Below, in pieces: positions 25,498 to 34,457 of a DNA stretch of 35,454 nt. This DNA comes from Planctomycetaceae bacterium. Lineage in GTDB: Bacteria > Planctomycetota > Planctomycetia > Planctomycetales > Planctomycetaceae. The notes beneath the pieces are model-generated. The model worked only from the letters and a program-made list of their open reading frames with translations. It searched no databases and was not told where the DNA came from. The DNA lies in assembly GCA_002726205.1 (NCBI GenBank), contig PBSL01000060.1, positions 1 through 35,454 of the forward strand. Reading direction: 5' to 3'. Each line of letters begins with the position of its first letter. The stretch's first letter is position 1. The position numbers and the translations under genes were made by a program.

Positions 25498-26132
25498 TGG
25501 AGGCTGTCGGGTTGATCGCCAGCGGCGTGTTTGTCGGCCTGGCGCTGGGCTGGTTCCTCTTCTCCGGCTCACGTGAGGCGGTCGAGGATCTGACGCGTCT
25601 GCAGGCCGAGTCGCGGACCGACCCGCTGACCGGACTGCCCAATCGGCGAGCCTTCGAAGAGGCCCTCGCGCAGATCTCTTCGGCCTCGCCGACAGTCCTG
25701 GCCCTGGTGGACCTGGACGAGCTGAAGTCGATCAACGATCGGCTTGGTCATGCCGCCGGAGACCAGGCGCTGCGGAGTGTCGCCGGCGTGCTCGAAGGAT
25801 CGGTGCGTACCGATGACCTGGCCTGTCGATGGGGTGGTGACGAATTCGCGCTGGTACTGCCGGGCGCGACGTTGCAGGATGGATGCCGGGTCGCCGAGCG
25901 GATTCAGGCGGCGTTGCGCGACGCTCCGGCCGCGTTGACCGTCAGTGTCGGGATCGCTGCCCGGCAACCCGGCGATACCGCCTGGCAACACTCCGACCAG
26001 GCACTCTTGGCGGCCAAGCGGCAGGGAGGAGACGCGGTCGCCGTTTGCGACGATCGGGGGTGCCGTATTGTCGAGACCCGTTGGGATCGGGATGATCGCA
26101 GCGGCGTTATTCCGTCAAGTCGTCCACGCTGA
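25497..26132 (+). CDS. membrane-anchored diguanylate cyclase (GGDEF)
   Basis: The 211-residue protein has one N-terminal membrane helix (LIASGVFVGLALGWFLF, about 6-23), a short linker and a GGDEF domain (about 40-195). The synthesis motif is intact at 113-117 (WGGDEFAL), DLDELKSINDRLGH and the DPLTGLPNRRAF signature are present, and R104-T-D-D107 five residues before GGDEF fits the inhibitory I-site. It should make cyclic di-GMP from two GTP and be product-inhibited. It has no separate sensor domain. The overlap with the exported redoxin suggests redox control, which is inference. The 3' end overlaps the convergent threonine-synthase-like gene by 26 bases. Confidence 0.94.
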   Translation: MEAVGLIASGVFVGLALGWFLFSGSREAVEDLTRLQAESRTDPLTGLPNRRAFEEALAQISSASPTVLALVDLDELKSINDRLGHAAGDQALRSVAGVLEGSVRTDDLACRWGGDEFALVLPGATLQDGCRVAERIQAALRDAPAALTVSVGIAARQPGDTAWQHSDQALLAAKRQGGDAVAVCDDRGCRIVETRWDRDDRSGVIPSSRPR

Positions 26133-27192
26133 TCGTTGGACACTCGACGTCGGCCAACATCCTGTCGACCGAGGCTTCGTCCTTGAATCCGCTGCCGGTG
26201 ACCAGGCAGACGATCACCGCGTCGCGTTGGATCCGGCCGGCGGCCGCCGCAGCAAGGCAGCCGGCCAATGCGGTCGCCCCGGCCGGCTCGGTGAAAATAC
26301 CTTCCTCGGTCGCCAGTCGCCGTTGTGTTTCCCAGACGGCTTCATCGGTGACCAGGTGGCCGCTGCCGCCGGTTCGGCGACATTCGTCGACGACCAGGTG
26401 ACCGTCGTTGATGTTGGGGACCTGCAGTCCGCTGATCCGCGTGGTGCAGGTGACCGGTCGCGCCTGCTCGGCGCCATCGCGCAGGGCCGAAGCCATCGTG
26501 TCGTTTCCCTCCGGTTGCACGCACTCGATTGCCGGGGACCGATCAATTCGCTGCTCGCTGACCAGCCGGTCAAATCCCCGCGCTACTGCCACGCAGAGAC
26601 CGCCGCCGCCGGCCGGGCAGAAGACGTGGTCGATCGACCGCGGCAGTTGCGCCTCGGCCTGTTCACCCAGCTCGAAACTGATTGTCTCGACACCGGTCAT
26701 CCCCGGCACGCTGTAAATATAGGAGCTGACCTGCAGGCGGACTTCGGGTTGTTCGCCGATGGCCGTCAGCACCGCGAAGGCGCGTGACGAGAGGTCCGGA
26801 TCGAGTCCGAAGCCGCGGATGCGGTAGACGTGAGCACCGTAGGCCATCATCTGTCGAAGCTTGCCGGTGGGCGCGGTTTCGACGACGGCGATCTCGCAGC
26901 GGAGTCCGGCCGCCGCCGAGTAAGCCGCGACGGCCGAGCCGGTGTTGCCGCTGGAGGTGGCCACGCAACGGGTCTGGCCGTTGGCGAGCATGTGCGAGAT
27001 CGCTGCCGCGCCGAACCGGTCCTTGAACGATCCGGCCGGATTGCCCGATTCGACCTTCAGCCAGAGGTTGGGGAGTCCGGCGGCCGGGCCGATCTTCTGC
27101 GAATGGACCAGCGGCGTGTCACCCTCTCCAAGCGTTACCCGATGCGGTTCGGGTACCGGTTCGATCCAGTCGGCCCACCGCCAGATGCTCAT
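26107..27192 (-). CDS. threonine synthase-like PLP-dependent enzyme
   Basis: The 361-residue protein is a fold type II pyridoxal-phosphate enzyme. K57 in SGNPAGSFKDRF is the cofactor lysine in the form typical of threonine synthase (threonine dehydratases have SFKxR without the Asp). ATSSGNTGSAVAAYSA binds phosphate and CPAGGGGL is the glycine-rich loop. Threonine synthase converts O-phosphohomoserine to threonine, but cysteate synthase and diaminopropionate-type enzymes share the motif. The genomic setting is a catabolic-looking cluster rather than a thr operon, so a different substrate is possible. It lies 34 bases downstream of the AstE/AspA-like gene. Confidence 0.87.
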   Translation of the reverse strand: MSIWRWADWIEPVPEPHRVTLGEGDTPLVHSQKIGPAAGLPNLWLKVESGNPAGSFKDRFGAAAISHMLANGQTRCVATSSGNTGSAVAAYSAAAGLRCEIAVVETAPTGKLRQMMAYGAHVYRIRGFGLDPDLSSRAFAVLTAIGEQPEVRLQVSSYIYSVPGMTGVETISFELGEQAEAQLPRSIDHVFCPAGGGGLCVAVARGFDRLVSEQRIDRSPAIECVQPEGNDTMASALRDGAEQARPVTCTTRISGLQVPNINDGHLVVDECRRTGGSGHLVTDEAVWETQRRLATEEGIFTEPAGATALAGCLAAAAAGRIQRDAVIVCLVTGSGFKDEASVDRMLADVECPTISVDDLTE

Positions 27193-27226
27193 CCCGTTCT
27201 CCCTGGTCCGCAGCCGCCGACGCGGT

Positions 27227-28144
27227 CTAACCGTCGCCGGGCTGAAGGTCTTCCATGATCACGATCACCGAGTCGTTCTCGTGAACCCGCGGGTAAGTTC
27301 TTATCGCCAGCACGTAGCCGTCCTGGGTGCAGGTGATTTCATGGACCTGCGAACCCGAGACGTTGGTGACGAATCCGAGGAGATCGTCGGGTCGAACCCG
27401 TTGGCCCAGTGAAACCGCCGGGGTGAACTGCCCGGTGATCGGCGAGGGGTTCTGGACTTGCATGTGGCCGGAACCGGGGCGGGGATCTTCGATCCGGAGG
27501 GTGACTGCCGAGGCCGGTCGCTCCCGCTTCAGCAGCTCCAGTTCGGCCATCACGTTCAGGCAGCCCTCGAAATAGGCGTCGGCACCCTCGGGCGAGCAAC
27601 GGCCGCCACCGAGGTACTCGGTGTAGATCGCCGCAACACCGGCATCGCGAGCGACCGACAGCGAGCGGCCGTTGAGATTGCCGGCGGTACCCCAGATGAC
27701 CGGCAGGTTGAACGCGTGGGCCATCCGTCGTTGCACGTCGAGGATCGCGGGGTCATCGCTGAGCCCGTAACCCGACATCGGCCAGACATCCATGATGATG
27801 CCGCCGGAGTGCAGGTCGATGTAGTAGTCGGCCGATTCGATCAACTGCGAGAGCGCGACGGCGGTTCGCAGCGTGACACTGCCCTCGGGGTCTCCCGGGC
27901 AGACCCGGGCCAGGTCCAGGCCGTCTTCGGCCGTGCGGTTCCCGGCCAGGAATGCGGCCTCGTTGACGACCGGGACCAGTGTCAATCGGCCCGACAGTTC
28001 CGACGCGTCGACGGCGATTGCCAACCGGCGGATCGCCGTCATCGATTCGAACTCGTCACCGTGCACGCCGCCGGTGATCAACAGGTGTGGGCCCTCGGCC
28101 TTCCCCACGACCTCAATTGTCTGCAATTCGATGGTGTCGGTCAT
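27227..28144 (-). CDS. succinylglutamate desuccinylase / aspartoacylase family zinc deacylase
   Basis: The 305-residue product is an AstE/AspA (M14-related) zinc amidohydrolase. Zinc ligands are H28 and E31 in GGVHGDEFES and H112 in YIDLHSGG; NRTAEDGLDLAR is the substrate-binding N-R...D-L-x-R segment. The C-terminal 80 residues (PAVSLGQRVRPDDLLGFV...) form a lipoyl-like beta barrel, as in N-alpha-acetyl-diaminobutyrate deacetylase (DoeB) and related members. It likely removes an acyl group from an acylated amino acid. Start at the ATG at 28144 or in-frame ATG at 28156; neither has a Shine-Dalgarno sequence. It is divergent from the RraA-like gene. Confidence 0.87.
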   Translation of the reverse strand: MTDTIELQTIEVVGKAEGPHLLITGGVHGDEFESMTAIRRLAIAVDASELSGRLTLVPVVNEAAFLAGNRTAEDGLDLARVCPGDPEGSVTLRTAVALSQLIESADYYIDLHSGGIIMDVWPMSGYGLSDDPAILDVQRRMAHAFNLPVIWGTAGNLNGRSLSVARDAGVAAIYTEYLGGGRCSPEGADAYFEGCLNVMAELELLKRERPASAVTLRIEDPRPGSGHMQVQNPSPITGQFTPAVSLGQRVRPDDLLGFVTNVSGSQVHEITCTQDGYVLAIRTYPRVHENDSVIVIMEDLQPGDG

Positions 28145-28162
28145 GATGCGTGGCATACTATA

Positions 28163-28176
28163 GGCTGTCGACAGCC
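28163..28176. promoter_or_regulatory. perfect 14-bp palindrome in a divergent promoter (putative operator)
   Basis: GGCTGTCGACAGCC reads identically on both strands. It lies in the 82-base gap between the divergent deacylase and RraA-like starts, directly beside an AT-rich TACTATAGG stretch that could serve as a -10 region in either direction. This is the expected place for a dimeric repressor that controls both operons. Confidence 0.55.
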
Positions 28177-28226
28177 AAGGGAAACCCGCGGCAACGGTTC
28201 CTTCGCCCCGGGGGGGGCAGACCACG

Positions 28227-28895
28227 ATGACGGACGTCTCACCCGAGACAATCACTCTCGAGATGATCAGGGAGTCGCTCTATGCGGCGGTTGTCTGCGA
28301 TGCGCTGGACGCGCTGGGCTACCGGCGGCAATCGCCGCGGGTGCCCCTGGAACCGCTGACTGTCGAGACCGTGCTCGTGGGCCGCTGCCGGACCACTCTG
28401 TGGGGGGACCTGTTTCATTCCGACCCGAGTCCGTATGAACTGGAACTGAAAGCCGTCGACGCCTGCCAGCCCGATGACGTGCTGATTGCTGCTGCCGGCG
28501 GTTCAAACCGCTCGGGGATCTGGGGCGAGTTGCTCTCGACGGCCGCCTGCAACAGTGGGTGCGTCGGCGCGATCGTCGACGGGGCCGTTCGCGATCTGCG
28601 ACAGATGCGCGAGATGGCATTTCCCGTCTTCGCCCGCCATCGAAACATCTACGACAGCAAGGATCGGCAACGCGTTGTCGAGATCGATGTCCCCGTCGAA
28701 ATCGACGGCGTCCGCTTCTGCTCGGGTGATCTGGTCGTCGCCGATGCTGACGGCGTGGTCGTGGTCCCGGCCGAAATCGAGGAACAGGCGATCCGCGATG
28801 CGTGGCAGAAGGTCCACGCCGAGAACATCACCCGCGATGCAATCCGGGGTGGCATGAAGGCGACCGATGCGTACGAGAAATACGGCGTGCTTTGA
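28227..28895 (+). CDS. RraA-like protein (HMG/CHA aldolase family)
   Basis: The 222-residue product carries the RraA/aldolase signature GIWGELLSTAACNSGCVGAIVDGAVRD, in which the G-E-L-L loop and R and D of DGAVRD bind the oxo-acid and divalent metal. FPVFAR and VVADADGVVVVP are further family landmarks. Members act as 4-hydroxy-4-methyl-2-oxoglutarate aldolases or oxaloacetate decarboxylases, while the E. coli namesake inhibits RNase E. In this metabolic cluster an aldolase or decarboxylase role is more likely, by inference. It lies 23 bases upstream of an aminotransferase on the same strand. Confidence 0.9.
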   Translation: MTDVSPETITLEMIRESLYAAVVCDALDALGYRRQSPRVPLEPLTVETVLVGRCRTTLWGDLFHSDPSPYELELKAVDACQPDDVLIAAAGGSNRSGIWGELLSTAACNSGCVGAIVDGAVRDLRQMREMAFPVFARHRNIYDSKDRQRVVEIDVPVEIDGVRFCSGDLVVADADGVVVVPAEIEEQAIRDAWQKVHAENITRDAIRGGMKATDAYEKYGVL

Positions 28896-28918
28896 ACGAG
28901 ATCCGGCAGGAGACAACC

Positions 28919-30267
<1,349 letters not shown>

Positions 30268-30271
<4 letters not shown>

Positions 30272-31059
30272 ATAACGCAGCGAGCGCGATCTGCACGGCG
30301 TCGGCCGTCGACGAGTACACCCGCTACCGCGATGACTACCTGCGGGACGGTTACGTCATAATCCCCGGCTTCTACCAGGGCGCCGCATTTGAAGAACTCG
30401 TCGGGGAACTCGATCGGTACGTCTCCGAGGTGGTCCCCACGCTGCCGGATTCGGCGGCCTTCTTCCAGGAGCAAGGTTCACCGGAATCTCTCAGCCAGAT
30501 GCAGCACATGGTGGATCCGTACTTCGCCGAGTTCGGGATCCGCGAGCCGTTCGTGAGCCTGGCCGAGGCGTTGATGGGCGAACCGGTCCGGGTGGGCAGA
30601 CCCGAGTGGTTCAACAAGCCGCCGGGAACCGCTCATCCGACGCCCCCGCACCAGGACAACTTCTACATCAACCTCGATCCATCCCCGCTGACCATGTGGC
30701 TGGCCCTGGATCCGGTGGACACGGAAAACGGCTGCCTGAAGTACCTGCCGGGCACGCACCGCGACGGCCTGCGGCCTCATACACGGACCCGGGTGCTGGG
30801 ATTCTCCCAGGGGATTTCCGACTGGAGCGACGAGGAGGCGGCGGCCCAGGTGCCGGCCTGCCTGCAGCCGGGCGATCTCACCGTCCATCACGGCGACACG
30901 ATCCACAGTGCCGACTGCAATACGACCACCGATCGTCACCGGCGGGCGTTTGCCCTGGTCTACCATACCGCCTCGGCACAACGAAACGAGGCAGCTCACG
31001 TCCGGCACACCGCGACAGCCCGCGAGCAGCACCTGGGCATGGGGCTCGACGTCGACTGA
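30268..31059 (+). CDS. phytanoyl-CoA dioxygenase (PhyH) family protein
   Basis: The 263-residue product is a non-haem iron, 2-oxoglutarate-dependent oxygenase. The iron triad is H128 and D130 in PPHQDNFYI plus H213 in HHGDTIHSADCN, and an arginine shortly after (DRHRRAF) can bind 2-oxoglutarate. MWLALDPVDTENGCLKYLPGTHRDG is characteristic of the family, which includes ectoine hydroxylase and many small-molecule hydroxylases in bacteria. Translation is coupled to the aminotransferase by a four-base overlap, so it probably hydroxylates a substrate or product of that enzyme. It converges on the MocA-type dehydrogenase 16 bases away. Confidence 0.93.
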
Positions 31060-31075
31060 CCGGTCACCGGACCCG

Positions 31076-32080
31076 TCACACGTCCTGCCAGGTGGCCGTG
31101 TCGGCAGCGGTCATGATCGCCAGGTTGCCCCGCAGCGTCTGCAAGCCCTCGTCGAACGGGCACAGCGGTGGCCTTTTGCCGGCGACGTAGTCAAGGAAAC
31201 AATGGGCCTGGCTGATAAAGACGTCGTCGCGCTGCAGTGGCTGGATCGTGTGATCGGTCCACGGGGTGTCCGGAGCGGTGACCAGCTGCCAGCGGTTTCG
31301 GTGCGTTTCGACCTTGATCGTGCCCCGCTCGCAGATCACCACCAGGGTGCTCTCGTTGGGAGCCTGGTGCTGGTTGAGCGTGTAGCCGACCATCACGTCA
31401 CCGTGCCGGGCGATGGCGTGTACCGAATCCTCGATCTCGACACCTTCGAGTCGCAGGTGGTCGCAGTCGGCGGCCACCCGGGTCATCGGGCCGACCAGCC
31501 ACTCGACCAGGTTGACCATGTGCGTCAGGCCGTCCTGGATCACCCCGCCACCGGTGGCGCGGTCGGTGTAGTAGATCTCCCGGTAGGCCGGGCGGTAGTG
31601 CGGGAAGTGCTGGCCGGAGACCATGATCACCTCGAGCGGTCGGCCCAGTTGGCCGGATTGCAGTTGCTCGCGAACGGCGATGTGCAGCGGATGGGCACGG
31701 TGGACATAGGCCATCGAGAACCGGGCCGTGTCGGCCCGGGCCAGTTCGGCCAAACGCCGGGTTCCCTCCAATGATGTCGAGAGTGGTTTCTCGCAGAGCA
31801 CGGCAATCCCCGCCTCGAGCAATCTTGTCGCCATGCCCACGTGCAGGTGAGCCGGCGTACAGATCACGGCGATGTCGGGCGGCCCGGACGGATTCGACAG
31901 GGCCGTGTCGAGGTCGGCGTGGGCGGCCCGCAGGTCATACAGGTCCTGGACTCGCGAACGCACCTCGTCGTTGGTCTCGCAGATGGAAACCTCGGCCCGC
32001 CCCGTCGTCAGGAAACAGCGGGTGTGCCGCTCGCCGATCGACCCGGTTCCGATCACCAGCACATGGGGAGCCGTTTCCAC
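31076..32080 (-). CDS. Gfo/Idh/MocA family NAD(P)-dependent oxidoreductase
   Basis: The 334-residue product has an N-terminal Rossmann fold (HVLVIGTGSIGERH, residues 6-19), the EKP motif with the catalytic lysine in VLCEKPLSTS, and a C-terminal alpha/beta domain with GLTHMVNLVEWL in the substrate site. Such enzymes oxidise or reduce sugars, inositols and amino-sugar-like compounds. I chose the GTG at 32080, preceded by AGGGGT at about seven bases, four bases after the upstream aminotransferase stop. No signal peptide is present, so it is cytoplasmic, unlike the many Tat-exported paralogues in planctomycetes. Confidence 0.92.
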   Translation of the reverse strand: METAPHVLVIGTGSIGERHTRCFLTTGRAEVSICETNDEVRSRVQDLYDLRAAHADLDTALSNPSGPPDIAVICTPAHLHVGMATRLLEAGIAVLCEKPLSTSLEGTRRLAELARADTARFSMAYVHRAHPLHIAVREQLQSGQLGRPLEVIMVSGQHFPHYRPAYREIYYTDRATGGGVIQDGLTHMVNLVEWLVGPMTRVAADCDHLRLEGVEIEDSVHAIARHGDVMVGYTLNQHQAPNESTLVVICERGTIKVETHRNRWQLVTAPDTPWTDHTIQPLQRDDVFISQAHCFLDYVAGKRPPLCPFDEGLQTLRGNLAIMTAADTATWQDV

Positions 32081-32084
32081 CGGG

Positions 32085-33452
32085 TTACCCCTGCTCACCG
32101 AGCACCTCGACGATGCTCTGCTCGAGGATGGCGAGCATCTCGTCGATCTGCTCGTCATTGACCGTCAGCGGAGGACCCAGGGCAAGCCAGTGAGGATCGA
32201 AGCGGGTGATCAAGCCGTTCTCCAACGCGCGGCGGCCGATCAGCTGCCCGATCGGCGGGTCGAACTGCTGCTTGGTGTCGGGGTCCTTGACGATCTCGAC
32301 ACACTGCAGCAGTCCCTTGCCTCGCAGGTCGCCGACGATCCCGTGCCGGGACAACGCGGCCAACCCGGCCCTGAGTCGCTCGCCCTGGCGGCGAACGTTG
32401 GCGCACAGGTCGTGTTCGATGATTTCCGAGAGCGTGGCCATCCCGGCGGCCGAAGAGATCGGGTTGCCCTCGAACGTGTGCCCCTCGACGAAACCGGGGT
32501 TCGTTTCCAGATCGCCCCAGAAGGCGTCGGCGACGTGTTGACGGCACAGCAACGCGGCAATCGGGGCGTAGCCGCCGGAGAGTCCCTTGCCGAGGCAGAG
32601 CAGGTCGGGGGTGACGCCGAAGGTCTGGGCGGCGAACATCTCGCCGGTGCGGCCCATCCCGGTGATGATCTCATCGAAGATCAACAACACGTTGTGCCGG
32701 TCGCAGTACTCCCGCAGCATCGGCAGGTATTCCTCGGGCGGATCGATCACACCGCCGGTATGCCCGATCGGTTCGACGATCACCGCGGCCACCGTGTCGG
32801 GGTCCTCCAGGTCGATCACGTCGTCGACCAGGCGAGCACAGGTCAGGTCGCACTCGGGGTAGGACTTGTCGAACGGGCAGCGGTAGCACGTCGGGGGAAA
32901 GACATGCAGGAATCCAGGTGCCAGTGGTTCGTTGACGGCCCGGCGGGATTTCAGGCCCCCGGCCGAGAGTGACCCCATCGTTGATCCGTGCCACGAGTGG
33001 TAGCGGCCGATGATCTTGTACTTGGTCGCGTTGCCGGTCAGCCGGTGGTACTGCCGGGCCATCTTGATGGCCGCCTCGGTCGTCTCCGAACCGCCCGAAA
33101 AGAACTTTGTTGCCGCCATGTCATCGGGGGCGACCTCGACGAGCTTGTTGGCCAACTGCACCGCCAGCGGATTGGTGCCGTGCATCACCGGCGAGAAGGT
33201 CAGCGTGTCGAGCTGCTGCTTGATCGCCTCGATCACGCGACGGTTGTTGTGGCCGACGCTGGCGACATAAATCCCCGAGAGTCCGTCGAGATACTGCTTG
33301 CCGTTGACGTCCCAGTAGTGCACGCCGTCGGCCCGGACCATGATCAGTGGATTCGCGACGAATTCCTTCATCTGCGAACGCACCATGATCTGCCGCAGGA
33401 ACTTTTCCTCGGTGGTCTGGGCATCGGAGATGATCTCGGTGACGGTCGTCAT
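32085..33452 (-). CDS. class III aminotransferase (omega-amino acid : pyruvate type)
   Basis: The 455-residue PLP enzyme has the class III motifs: FFSGGSETTEAAIKMAR, YHSWHGSTMG, D260 in LIFDEIITGMGRTG and K289 in LLCLGKGLSGGYAP. The overall pattern matches omega-amino acid:pyruvate and taurine:pyruvate-type aminotransferases, which convert terminal amines to aldehydes. Residues 189-205 hold four cysteines (TCYRCPF...ECDLTC), a feature I recall from some relatives. The ATG at 33452 follows AGGGAG at eight bases. It lies between the class IV aminotransferase and the MocA-type dehydrogenase, the latter four bases downstream. The physiological amine is unknown. Confidence 0.93.
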   Translation of the reverse strand: MTTVTEIISDAQTTEEKFLRQIMVRSQMKEFVANPLIMVRADGVHYWDVNGKQYLDGLSGIYVASVGHNNRRVIEAIKQQLDTLTFSPVMHGTNPLAVQLANKLVEVAPDDMAATKFFSGGSETTEAAIKMARQYHRLTGNATKYKIIGRYHSWHGSTMGSLSAGGLKSRRAVNEPLAPGFLHVFPPTCYRCPFDKSYPECDLTCARLVDDVIDLEDPDTVAAVIVEPIGHTGGVIDPPEEYLPMLREYCDRHNVLLIFDEIITGMGRTGEMFAAQTFGVTPDLLCLGKGLSGGYAPIAALLCRQHVADAFWGDLETNPGFVEGHTFEGNPISSAAGMATLSEIIEHDLCANVRRQGERLRAGLAALSRHGIVGDLRGKGLLQCVEIVKDPDTKQQFDPPIGQLIGRRALENGLITRFDPHWLALGPPLTVNDEQIDEMLAILEQSIVEVLGEQG

Positions 33453-33497
33453 GGGACGACTCCCTTGCGTTGGTGGTTTCCGATCCGCGTGAGCCTG

Positions 33498-34457
33498 TCA
33501 GCAATGTTCCGGCAAGGTCGCCAGCGAAGCACGGCGGAGCTGGGCACCCTGTCGGATTTGTTTTCGAATGTCCAGTCCGACCAGCGTGTCCCACGCCGTC
33601 AGCAGGCGGTCGGCGATCGGGCCGGGCTCGCCGTCACCGACCGGCTGTCCGTTGATGCGGGTCACCGGTGCCAGGCAATACGGAGTGCTGGCCACCAGGG
33701 CCTCGTCGGCCCGGTCCAGGTCGGCGGCTTGAAGCTCCTGTTGTTCGAATTCCAGCCCCAGGTCGTCGCACAGCTCCCGGAGGACCTGCAAGCTGATGCC
33801 CGGCAGCACCCGCTCGGCGACCGGCGAAATGACTTGTGTGCCGACGACGATCAGGAAACTGGCGGCAACCGTTTCGGTGATCCGGCCCTGCTCGTCCAGC
33901 AGCAGCGCCCGGGCGTTTTCGTCGTCACGGCGGGCCTCGCGGTCGGCCAGGTAGTAGTGCAACCGGCTGCGGTGCTTGATCGCCGGATCGACGCACGACG
34001 CCGGCAACTGCCGCACCGAGGGAATCACCAGGTGCAGGCCCTGCGACTGCATGTCGTCCCACAGTTCAAATGGCAGCGGAAACGTGTGGATGCAGACGGT
34101 CGGCCGGGCCGGACCGTGTCGAGCCACTTCGCCGGCATAGGTCGCATAGGCTCCGGCGGTCACGAACAGGACCAGGCCGAGGTCGGCTTCCGCCTCGAGA
34201 CCGACGGTGTTGTGAGCCACCAGGTCCCGGCAGGTTCCGGCCAGGTCATCGAGAGAGATCCCGATGTCAAACCCGACCGAATCCAGCGACCGCGCCAGCC
34301 TCTGCAGGTGCTCGTCGAGACGGAACAACCGCTGGGCGAAGGTGCGGAGAGTCTCGGAGACCGTCGCGCCCTGGACGATGCCGGCATCAAAGACCGGCAG
34401 CAGCGCCTGGTCGCCGGGAATCAACTGTCCGTTGAGATAGGCCAGGGGTTGGTGCAT
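33498..34457 (-). CDS. class IV aminotransferase (branched-chain / D-amino acid / aminodeoxychorismate lyase family)
   Basis: The 319-residue product is a fold type IV PLP enzyme. YLNGQLIPGDQALLPVFDAGIVQGATVSETLRTF is the conserved N-terminal pattern (residues 8-40), K161 in AIKHRSRLHYYLADREA is the cofactor lysine, and LLDEQGRITETVAASFLIVV is the typical E-x-x-x-x-N/S region. Whether it acts on branched-chain amino acids, D-amino acids or aminodeoxychorismate is not clear. The start is the ATG at 34457; upstream residues are not conserved. It is the first gene of a three-gene unit and divergent from the TerC gene across 139 bases. Confidence 0.91.
   Translation of the reverse strand: MHQPLAYLNGQLIPGDQALLPVFDAGIVQGATVSETLRTFAQRLFRLDEHLQRLARSLDSVGFDIGISLDDLAGTCRDLVAHNTVGLEAEADLGLVLFVTAGAYATYAGEVARHGPARPTVCIHTFPLPFELWDDMQSQGLHLVIPSVRQLPASCVDPAIKHRSRLHYYLADREARRDDENARALLLDEQGRITETVAASFLIVVGTQVISPVAERVLPGISLQVLRELCDDLGLEFEQQELQAADLDRADEALVASTPYCLAPVTRINGQPVGDGEPGPIADRLLTAWDTLVGLDIRKQIRQGAQLRRASLATLPEHC

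What the first reader, a model, noticed from the sequence alone, without database searches (positions are those of the whole stretch)
26107..34457. Eight-gene amino-compound cluster with three aminotransferase-fold enzymes, RraA, PhyH, deacylase and MocA dehydrogenase
Three facing operons bring together a threonine-synthase-like PLP enzyme, an AstE/AspA deacylase, an RraA aldolase-like protein, a GSA-aminomutase-like and an omega-aminotransferase, a class IV aminotransferase, a PhyH hydroxylase and a Gfo/Idh/MocA dehydrogenase. A plausible scheme is deacylation, hydroxylation, transamination or isomerisation, oxidation and retro-aldol cleavage of an acylated amino compound. No transporter is present in the window, and the substrate is unknown.
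Basis: partly seen in the sequence, partly recalled or inferred. Interest (0 to 1): 0.62.

Follow-up and report, generated by a model that had tools for sequence, protein, structure and literature searches.

The report
Conserved planctomycete amino-compound degradation gene module
Seven of the eight genes belong to sets that planctomycete bacteria repeatedly keep together, probably to break down an acylated amino compound such as an amino-sugar acid, although the actual food molecule is still unknown.

Summary
All eight ORFs exist and carry the stated domains. AstE-PALP and RraA-GSAM-PhyH diverge from a 70-bp gap; MocA-AT3-AT4 converges on the latter. In 170 genomes of the order, leaving out the four closest, pairs recur within 15 kb in distant genera: GSAM-PhyH in 28 of 39 genomes holding both, AstE-MocA 18 of 85, PhyH-MocA 10 of 70, RraA-PALP 8 of 65, PALP-AstE 7 of 60 (chance below 0.4 each). 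AstE and GSAM co-occur with odds ratio 72 but are seldom close. AT3 showed no co-location, in only 2 to 11 genomes per pair. In other families of the phylum AstE and PALP sit with M81, RidA and a sodium symporter in part of the loci. By score cut-offs the PALP is not threonine synthase, the AstE is not DoeB and GSAM is not HemL. Best reading: a catabolic module for an N-acylated hydroxy-amino acid, most likely an amino-sugar acid: deacylation, PLP-dependent ammonia elimination, then breakdown of a 2-keto-3-deoxy acid by RraA or HpcH. Substrate and step order are inferred. Two loosely coupled modules remain a serious rival.

The parts
26107..27192 (-). PALP: PLP enzyme, threonine-synthase-like fold but with a GGGGL loop; probable 2-amino-3-hydroxy-acid ammonia-lyase
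   Evidence: Pfam PF00291; below the cut-off of each threonine synthase model shown; GGGGL in 16 of 16 aligned sequences where the aligned threonine synthases read GNAGN; separate ThrC in the genome
27227..28156 (-). AstE/AspA-family deacylase (ORF runs to 28255; likely ATG at 28156)
   Evidence: Pfam PF24827; H65, E68, H149 and E213 (numbered from 28255) in 50 of 50; DLAR in 50 of 50 where the aligned solved relatives read NR
28157..28226 (.). 70-bp divergent gap between AstE and RraA
   Evidence: length depends on the assigned AstE start
28227..28895 (+). RraA-family protein, probable class II aldolase or lyase of a 2-oxo-4-hydroxy acid
   Evidence: Pfam PF03737; Arg122-Asp123 in 45 of 45, like the RD pair that PMC5065237 describes
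28919..30271 (+). GSAM-like class III aminotransferase or aminomutase (ORF opens at 28802; likely ATG 28919)
   Evidence: Pfam PF00202; Lys of FAKSISNG in 14 of 14; below hemL cut-off
30268..31059 (+). PhyH-family Fe(II)/2-oxoglutarate dioxygenase
   Evidence: Pfam PF05721; HxD, distal His and Arg in 15 of 15
31076..32080 (-). Gfo/Idh/MocA oxidoreductase (ORF runs to 32158; likely GTG 32080)
   Evidence: Pfam PF01408 and PF22725; EKP motif in 11 of 11
32085..33452 (-). class III omega-aminotransferase; probably not part of the conserved module
   Evidence: Pfam PF00202; 20 of 170 genomes at E 1e-140, no co-location outside the close group
33498..34457 (-). class IV aminotransferase (ORF runs to 34475)
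   Evidence: Pfam PF01063; co-located with PhyH, MocA or GSAM elsewhere

Best explanation
The stretch is the local version of a catabolic module found in many Planctomycetota that degrades an N-acylated, hydroxylated amino-acid-like compound, most likely an N-acetylated 2-amino-2-deoxy sugar acid. Inferred scheme: AstE removes the acyl group from an N-acyl alpha-amino acid. The PALP enzyme eliminates the 3-hydroxyl and then ammonia, giving a 2-keto-3-deoxy acid; RidA helps in some relatives. RraA, or HpcH/HpaI in relatives, cleaves or otherwise breaks that acid, most simply to pyruvate plus an aldehyde. MocA and, in relatives, short-chain dehydrogenases and an amidohydrolase-2 lactonase would make or trim the acid. 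PhyH hydroxylates an upstream form. GSAM and AT4 move or remove a second amino group. A sodium:solute symporter imports the substrate in relatives. Shown by computation: the gene families, intact catalytic residues, repeated clustering and co-occurrence. Not shown: the substrate, the order of steps, and any enzyme activity.
For: Co-location outside the four closest genomes, within 15 kb: GSAM-PhyH 28 of 39 genomes (13 genera), the 38-48% GSAM type with PhyH 15 of 47 (7), AstE-MocA 18 of 85 (6), PhyH-MocA 10 of 70 (7), RraA-PALP 8 of 65 (4), PALP-AstE 7 of 60 (3), AstE-PhyH 7 of 75 (3), RraA-AstE 3 of 82 (2). Co-occurrence over 170 genomes: AstE-GSAM odds ratio 72, AstE-MocA 23, GSAM-PhyH 22, RraA-PALP 9. 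Outside the order AstE lies near PALP in 5 of 8 loci, a symporter in 4, M81 in 3, RidA in 2. Recurrent partners are sugar-acid types: HpcH/HpaI nearest HpaI, GarL and RhmA models, SDRs nearest sugar or gluconate dehydrogenase models, Amidohydro_2, an enolase nearest galactonate dehydratase; the NCBIfam matches are below cut-off. RraA keeps the Arg-Asp pair, and an RraA-family enzyme acting on a 2-keto-3-deoxy sugar acid is published (PMC8563752, passages). A published pathway for N-acetylglucosaminic acid uses a symporter, a deacetylase, a PLP ammonia-releasing enzyme and a RidA protein (PMC9537276, passages and section 13).
Against: No substrate evidence. RraA is never within 15 kb of GSAM (0 of 32; 0 of 55 for the second GSAM type), PhyH (0 of 72) or MocA (0 of 77) outside the close group; PALP-PhyH is 0 of 47, PALP-GSAM 0 of 18 and 1 of 44, PALP-MocA 2 of 52; AstE-GSAM is 1 of 40 and 3 of 59. 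AstE and PALP differ in family from the published deacetylase and ammonia-releasing enzyme. The nearest solved structures of the PALP model are threonine synthases (Z 35-39, rmsd 2.3-3.0), which have another reaction. PhyH, GSAM and AT4 have no settled step. In the window's own genome the HpcH and amidohydrolase relatives lie on other contigs. 3 of 8 PALP loci outside the order show no other enzyme of the set. Most co-locations are minorities of genomes, related genomes are not independent, and genome incompleteness inflates co-occurrence.
Confidence: 0.4

Rival explanations
1. Two catabolic modules that happen to adjoin in this genus: AstE-PALP-RraA (with M81 and RidA elsewhere) for an N-acyl hydroxy amino acid, and GSAM-PhyH-MocA-AT4 (with amidohydrolase and symporter elsewhere) for another amine. 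They share intermediates at most.
For: RraA with GSAM, PhyH or MocA: 0 of 32, 0 of 72, 0 of 77; PALP-PhyH 0 of 47. RraA has M81 nearby in 11 of 37 loci, while GSAM clusters mainly with PhyH.
Against: AstE bridges both halves: AstE-MocA 18 of 85, AstE-PhyH 7 of 75; AstE and GSAM occur together in 100 genomes against 6 with AstE alone and 12 with GSAM alone. L085 holds AstE, PALP, MocA and a GSAM-type gene on one stretch, L034 holds AstE, PALP, RraA and MocA.
Confidence: 0.27
2. A biosynthetic cluster that makes or remodels a hydroxylated amino compound (natural product, surface sugar or osmolyte) with PhyH, aminotransferases and MocA.
For: Several PhyH relatives in the PDB are named as enzymes that I recall as biosynthetic (SnoN, SnoK, EvdO2, MysH), beside human PHYH and PHYHD1; GSAM relatives include C-6' aminotransferases.
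Against: The recurrent neighbours that were annotated are hydrolases, aldolases, sugar-acid-type dehydrogenases and sodium symporters, with an IclR regulator in some; none of those annotated is a synthase, ligase or glycosyltransferase, but not every neighbour was scanned.
Confidence: 0.14
3. Ectoine or hydroxyectoine degradation, with AstE as DoeB/EutE, PALP as EutB and M24 as DoeA.
For: DoeB is the only NCBIfam hit of AstE; an M24 hydrolase lies near AstE in L047, L066, L091 and L154.
Against: DoeB score 97.3 against a cut-off of 402.7; AR replaces NR in 50 of 50; EutB model 63.3 against 413; no M24 among the eight genes; the one M24 protein scanned matches PepQ and aminopeptidase models at E 1e-20 or better, far below cut-off, and no ectoine model.
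Confidence: 0.06
4. An unlinked run of ordinary genes that stays together only by general synteny among close relatives.
For: In the close genus the flanks (GGDEF, sulfatase, MAP, TerC) are kept too. One distant AstE-PhyH locus (L087) also has a MAP relative (61-65%) about 4 kb away.
Against: The flanks are not kept beside RraA in the 37 distant loci apart from one weak GGDEF match, nor in 19 of the 20 loci, while the pairs recur in distant genera.
Confidence: 0.04

Closest known systems
ong cluster for oxidised chitin monomer (N-acetylglucosaminic acid) in a marine bacterium, strain ACAM 620 (PMC9537276)
   Same: Logic of import by a sodium:solute symporter, deacetylation, PLP-dependent ammonia release to a 2-keto-3-deoxy acid, with a RidA protein
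   Different: Deacetylase is D-aminoacylase-like and the ammonia-releasing enzyme is fold type III there; here AstE and a PALP. Here there are also PhyH, GSAM, MocA and RraA (HpcH in relatives); a KDG kinase was not searched for
Ectoine/hydroxyectoine degradation (DoeB/EutE, EutB, DoeA)
   Same: AstE-family deacylase, PALP enzyme, M24 hydrolase in some relatives
   Different: AstE and PALP fall far below the family cut-offs; the NR motif of solved DoeB reads AR
FlDet, an RraA-family enzyme of oxidative alginate metabolism (PMC8563752)
   Same: RraA family, acting on a 2-keto-3-deoxy sugar acid
   Different: Dehydratase/decarboxylase there; the reaction here is unknown; no direct sequence comparison was made
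HMG/CHA aldolase (PMC5065237; PDB 3noj)
   Same: RraA family, Arg-Asp pair
   Different: 63.6 bits to 3noj; below its NCBIfam cut-off (101.4 against 179)
Threonine synthase (ThrC)
   Same: Fold (Z 35-39 to solved enzymes), SFKDR
   Different: GGGGL for GNAGN; below the cut-off; the genome has a separate ThrC

Membership tests
DoeB / EutE (N-acetyl-diaminobutyrate deacetylase) | NCBIfam TIGR02994 score above cut-off | tested here: not met
   97.3 bits against 402.7
DoeB / EutE (N-acetyl-diaminobutyrate deacetylase) | Asn-Arg motif of solved DoeB, 3cdx and 2qj8 | tested here: not met
   Ala-Arg in 50 of 50
AstE/AspA deacylase family | Pfam gathering score and metal/catalytic residues | tested here: met
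   88.1 bits against 25; H65, E68, H149, E213 in 50 of 50; their roles are recalled
Threonine synthase (ThrC) | NCBIfam TIGR00260 score above cut-off | tested here: not met
   125.1 bits against 167.1; another gene of the genome scores 202.8
Threonine synthase (ThrC) | GNAGN loop seen in the aligned solved threonine synthases | tested here: not met
   GGGGL in 16 of 16
PALP ammonia-lyases | ammonia release from a 2-amino-3-hydroxy acid | not testable with these tools
   needs an assay
HemL (glutamate-1-semialdehyde aminomutase) | NCBIfam TIGR00713 score above cut-off | tested here: not met
   246.7 bits against 527.3
HMG/CHA-type class II pyruvate aldolase (RraA family) | Arg-Asp pair for enolate and metal | tested here: met
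   45 of 45; role from PMC5065237 passages
HMG/CHA-type class II pyruvate aldolase (RraA family) | NCBIfam cut-offs of the named aldolases | tested here: not met
   NF006731 101.4 against 179; TIGR02798 88.7 against 304.5
PhyH dioxygenases | Pfam score and HxD...H...R residues | tested here: met
   111.9 bits against 22; 15 of 15
ong pathway (N-acetylglucosaminic acid) | sodium:solute symporter in the cluster | tested here: inconclusive
   none hit in the window; present in 8 of the 20 loci, one of them at 28%, and in 4 of 8 loci outside the order
ong pathway (N-acetylglucosaminic acid) | D-aminoacylase-type deacetylase and fold type III ammonia-releasing enzyme | tested here: not met
   AstE and PALP in the window instead; among the loci an Ala_racemase_N/D-ser_dehydrat protein clusters only in L082 and L083
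ong pathway (N-acetylglucosaminic acid) | KDG kinase | not tested
   not searched for

The most novel reading that the evidence does not exclude
An undescribed route of Planctomycetota that takes N-acylated amino-sugar acids (or close relatives) to pyruvate without phosphorylation, with a new AstE clade as deacetylase, a threonine-synthase-like ammonia-lyase, RraA as the cleaving enzyme, and a PhyH hydroxylase plus a GSAM enzyme that in other genera is fused to an amidohydrolase or to a D-2-hydroxyacid dehydrogenase domain.
Probability: 0.27. Interest if true: 0.66.

Novelty: new variant of a known kind. Interest (0 to 1): 0.5.

Why it matters
Planctomycetes are thought to be important degraders of organic nitrogen and sugars (recalled), but few of their catabolic gene sets have a known substrate. 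A gene set that recurs across genera of one order and, in part, in other families of the phylum gives concrete enzymes to assay, and would tie AstE, threonine-synthase-like and RraA clades, whose nearest model names do not fit, to real reactions.

Tried and rejected
Considered and rejected or marked down: ectoine/hydroxyectoine degradation (cut-offs and motif); the 2026 paper on ectoines in Planctomycetota (PMC13342039, passages for five terms) showed no degradation genes in the passages seen. AT3 as part of the module (0 co-locations outside the close group, in 2 to 11 genomes per pair). The idea that the rest of the pathway sits beside the amidohydrolase on contig C26 of the same genome: it lies there with a weak symporter match (29%), but the HpcH relative 26 kb away is in a stretch with chorismate synthase and a LarA-like protein. 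Enolase, ceramidase-like, PQQ-propeller and HEAT neighbours were treated as weak hints because such families are common in planctomycetes (recalled).

Led nowhere: the PhyH model had mean pLDDT 54.2 and was not used. No solved structure matched the amidohydrolase at E 0.001. PDB matches of MocA and AT4 were too broad to name a substrate. PMC12632266 (L-glucose route, passages) and PMC12343721 (archaeal chitin users, passages) gave no matching gene set. Of ten paper searches no listed title or abstract start described this gene set; searches returned no paper and one unrelated paper. Listings were capped (10 of 268, 10 of 23, 10 of 14), and the library holds open-licence papers only.

Rows dropped before the counts: RraA rows of G040, G138, G021 and the second of G070 (partial or about 40% identity), so 118 of 121 genomes; the last 14 PhyH rows (35-41% identity), so 95 of 108 genomes; AT4 rows weaker than E 1.2e-85, so 75 rows in 64 genomes (the list was itself cut). 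Class III hits were split by identity into 48 rows (61% or more) and 69 rows (38-48%). The chance figure assumes a 6.8-Mb genome and independence; Fisher tests ignore relatedness and incompleteness. The comment '17 rows' in the script is wrong; it was 14. On checking, the counts of neighbours were redone by tblastn, and confidence in the best reading was lowered from 0.42 to 0.40 and of the novel case from 0.28 to 0.27, with the two-module rival raised from 0.25 to 0.27 and the biosynthetic rival from 0.13 to 0.14, because AstE and GSAM are seldom close and not every neighbour was scanned.
Full report
What is there. The window is one whole contig, C61, of a genome of 4.86 Mb whose closest named records are Planctomycetaceae. 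All eight ORFs of the finding are present and exceed their Pfam gathering scores. From the left: PALP (-), AstE (-), RraA (+), GSAM-like (+), PhyH (+), MocA (-), class III aminotransferase AT3 (-), class IV aminotransferase AT4 (-). Start codons judged from orthologues give GSAM at 28919, AstE at 28156, MocA at 32080 and AT4 at 34457. GSAM and PhyH then overlap by 4 bases, MocA starts 4 bases after the AT3 stop, and AstE and RraA diverge from a 70-bp gap. So there are three short operons by spacing, two divergent and the third facing the second.

Close relatives. A pattern-based scan of one genome per species for 84,980 species with AstE gave 36 loci. Three of them hold the block: L003 and L004 with all eight genes, L002 with six up to the contig end; the flanking GGDEF, sulfatase and MAP genes are kept as well. 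That is ordinary synteny and proves little.

Distant relatives. The same 170 genomes of the order were searched with each of the eight proteins: RraA in 121 at E 1e-30, PALP in 76 at 1e-75, AstE in 106 at 1e-50, GSAM in 112 at 1e-75, PhyH in 108 at 1e-35, MocA in 101 at 1e-60, AT3 in 20 at 1e-140, AT4 in 159 at 1e-45 with paralogues. Co-location within 15 kb, with the four closest genomes (G000, G167-G169) left out: GSAM-PhyH 28 of 39 genomes holding both, in 13 genera; the 38-48% GSAM type with PhyH 15 of 47, 7 genera; AstE-MocA 18 of 85, 6 genera; PhyH-MocA 10 of 70, 7 genera; PhyH-AT4 10 of 45, 4 genera; RraA-PALP 8 of 65, 4 genera; PALP-AstE 7 of 60, 3 genera; AstE-PhyH 7 of 75, 3 genera; GSAM-AT4 7 of 23, 2 genera; MocA-AT4 6 of 42, 4 genera; GSAM-MocA 6 of 35, 4 genera; second GSAM type with MocA 5 of 54, 3 genera; RraA-AstE 3 of 82, 2 genera. 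Each expectation by chance is below 0.4. Against: RraA with GSAM, second GSAM type, PhyH, MocA or AT4 is 0 of 32, 55, 72, 77 and 37; PALP-PhyH is 0 of 47, PALP-GSAM 0 of 18 and 1 of 44, PALP-MocA 2 of 52, PALP-AT4 0 of 29; AstE-GSAM is 1 of 40 and 3 of 59, AstE-AT4 2 of 43; AT3 is 0 in every pairing, but the pairings hold only 2 to 11 genomes. Presence over the 170 genomes agrees with a link: AstE-GSAM odds ratio 72, AstE-MocA 23, GSAM-PhyH 22, GSAM-MocA 21, RraA-PALP 9, the other pairs among these six 2.3 to 8.8, and no significant link for AT3. Incomplete genomes inflate such figures; AT3, with odds ratios of 0.5 to 2.6, is a rough control.

Neighbours. In 37 RraA-centred loci of other genera (selected from the 121 genomes with a hit, not drawn at random) M81 lies within the locus in 11, PALP orthologues in 4, AstE in 2, M24 in 2 and an enolase in 3. 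In the 20 loci, most of them chosen because genes of the set were near each other, tblastn finds a sodium:solute symporter in 8 (one at 28%), an HpcH/HpaI aldolase in 8 (6 at 58% or more, 2 at 33-35%) and an amidohydrolase-2 protein in 9, four of them at the N-terminus of the GSAM protein. Pfam confirms the amidohydrolase-GSAM fusion in L083 and L085, and a D-2-hydroxyacid dehydrogenase-GSAM fusion in L089. Outside the order, PALP is found in 8 of 25 positive genomes of a phylum sample of 392; AstE lies near it in 5 of those 8 loci, a symporter in 4, M81 in 3, a class III aminotransferase at 31-35% to GSAM in 3, RidA in 2, and AT4 with M24 in 1; three loci show none of these. L032, a Verrucomicrobiales record, has AstE and PALP side by side, and L034 has AstE, PALP, RraA and MocA with an IclR-type regulator, RidA, M81 and two SDR-like proteins.

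The enzymes. PALP scores 125.1 bits to ThrC against a cut-off of 167.1, and another gene of the same genome scores 202.8. Its model (pLDDT 83.2) is nearest to threonine synthases (Z 35 to 39, rmsd 2.3 to 3.0 over 310 to 326 residues), then CapA2 (Z 34.0), serine dehydratase and serine racemases (Z 32 to 33). Where the aligned threonine synthases read GNAGN it reads GGGGL, in 16 of 16 aligned sequences; that this loop is typical of serine and threonine dehydratases is recalled. AstE keeps its metal and catalytic residues in 50 of 50, but has DLAR in 50 of 50 where 3cdx, 2qj8 and the two DoeB structures have an NR pair. RraA has the Arg-Asp pair in 45 of 45, PhyH HxD, distal His and Arg in 15 of 15, GSAM its lysine in 14 of 14, MocA EKP in 11 of 11. 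These alignments hold only sequences above identity and length floors that I set, the window included.

How it may work. The recurrent partners point to sugar-acid chemistry: the aldolase is nearest HpaI, GarL and 2-keto-3-deoxy-rhamnonate aldolase models, the SDRs nearest glucose, rhamnose or gluconate dehydrogenase models among many, the enolase nearest galactonate dehydratase, each below the curated cut-off. AstE enzymes act on N-acyl alpha-amino acids (recalled), and an N-acetylated amino-sugar acid is one. A PALP ammonia-lyase on a 2-amino-3-hydroxy acid would give a 2-keto-3-deoxy acid, and RidA proteins go with such enzymes (recalled). RraA-family enzymes can act on such acids (PMC8563752, passages). 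The published route for N-acetylglucosaminic acid uses a symporter, deacetylation and PLP ammonia release, with a RidA protein (PMC9537276, passages and section 13), but with other enzyme families. I therefore take an N-acylated amino-sugar acid, or another N-acylated hydroxy amino acid, as the most likely substrate. PhyH, GSAM and AT4 have no firm place in this scheme. That seven genes form real, recurring gene sets I hold at about 0.9; that it is one pathway, about 0.55; the substrate class, about 0.35.

What would change this. The strongest rival is two modules joined here by chance, because RraA and PALP rarely or never meet GSAM and PhyH elsewhere, and AstE is the bridge. Biochemistry of AstE, PALP and RraA would settle most of it.

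Noticed in passing
L083:13414-15774 and L085:18054-19901: GSAM-type aminotransferase fused behind an amidohydrolase-2 domain (Pfam). Of the 69 rows of 38-48% identity, 57 lie in open frames of 740 aa or more, whose partner domains were mostly not checked. The window's genome has a separate relative of that domain (59%) on contig C27.
   Followed up: partly
L089:5817-8165 (-): GSAM orthologue (66%) fused behind a D-2-hydroxyacid dehydrogenase, an alternative fusion partner.
   Followed up: partly
L082:5777-6904 (-) and its homologue in L083: An Ala_racemase_N/D-ser_dehydrat protein, nearest 3-hydroxy-D-aspartate aldolase BhcC (176 bits, cut-off 690), between MocA and an amidohydrolase.
   Followed up: partly
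L033:5185-12245: A Gemmatimonadetes record with AstE (53%) and PhyH, RraA, second AstE and MocA relatives at 26-31% within 8 kb, a similar gene set outside the phylum.
   Followed up: no
L087:5103-8261 and L088:4973-8168: PhyH, a polysaccharide-deacetylase protein and AstE in a row in two genomes of one genus.
   Followed up: partly
window:19759-21312 (-): Sulfatase with an N-sulphoglucosamine sulphohydrolase C-terminal domain about 5 kb from the cluster.
   Followed up: no
window:34459-35454 (+): TerC-family protein whose C-terminus is an EESAE repeat running off the contig end.
   Followed up: no
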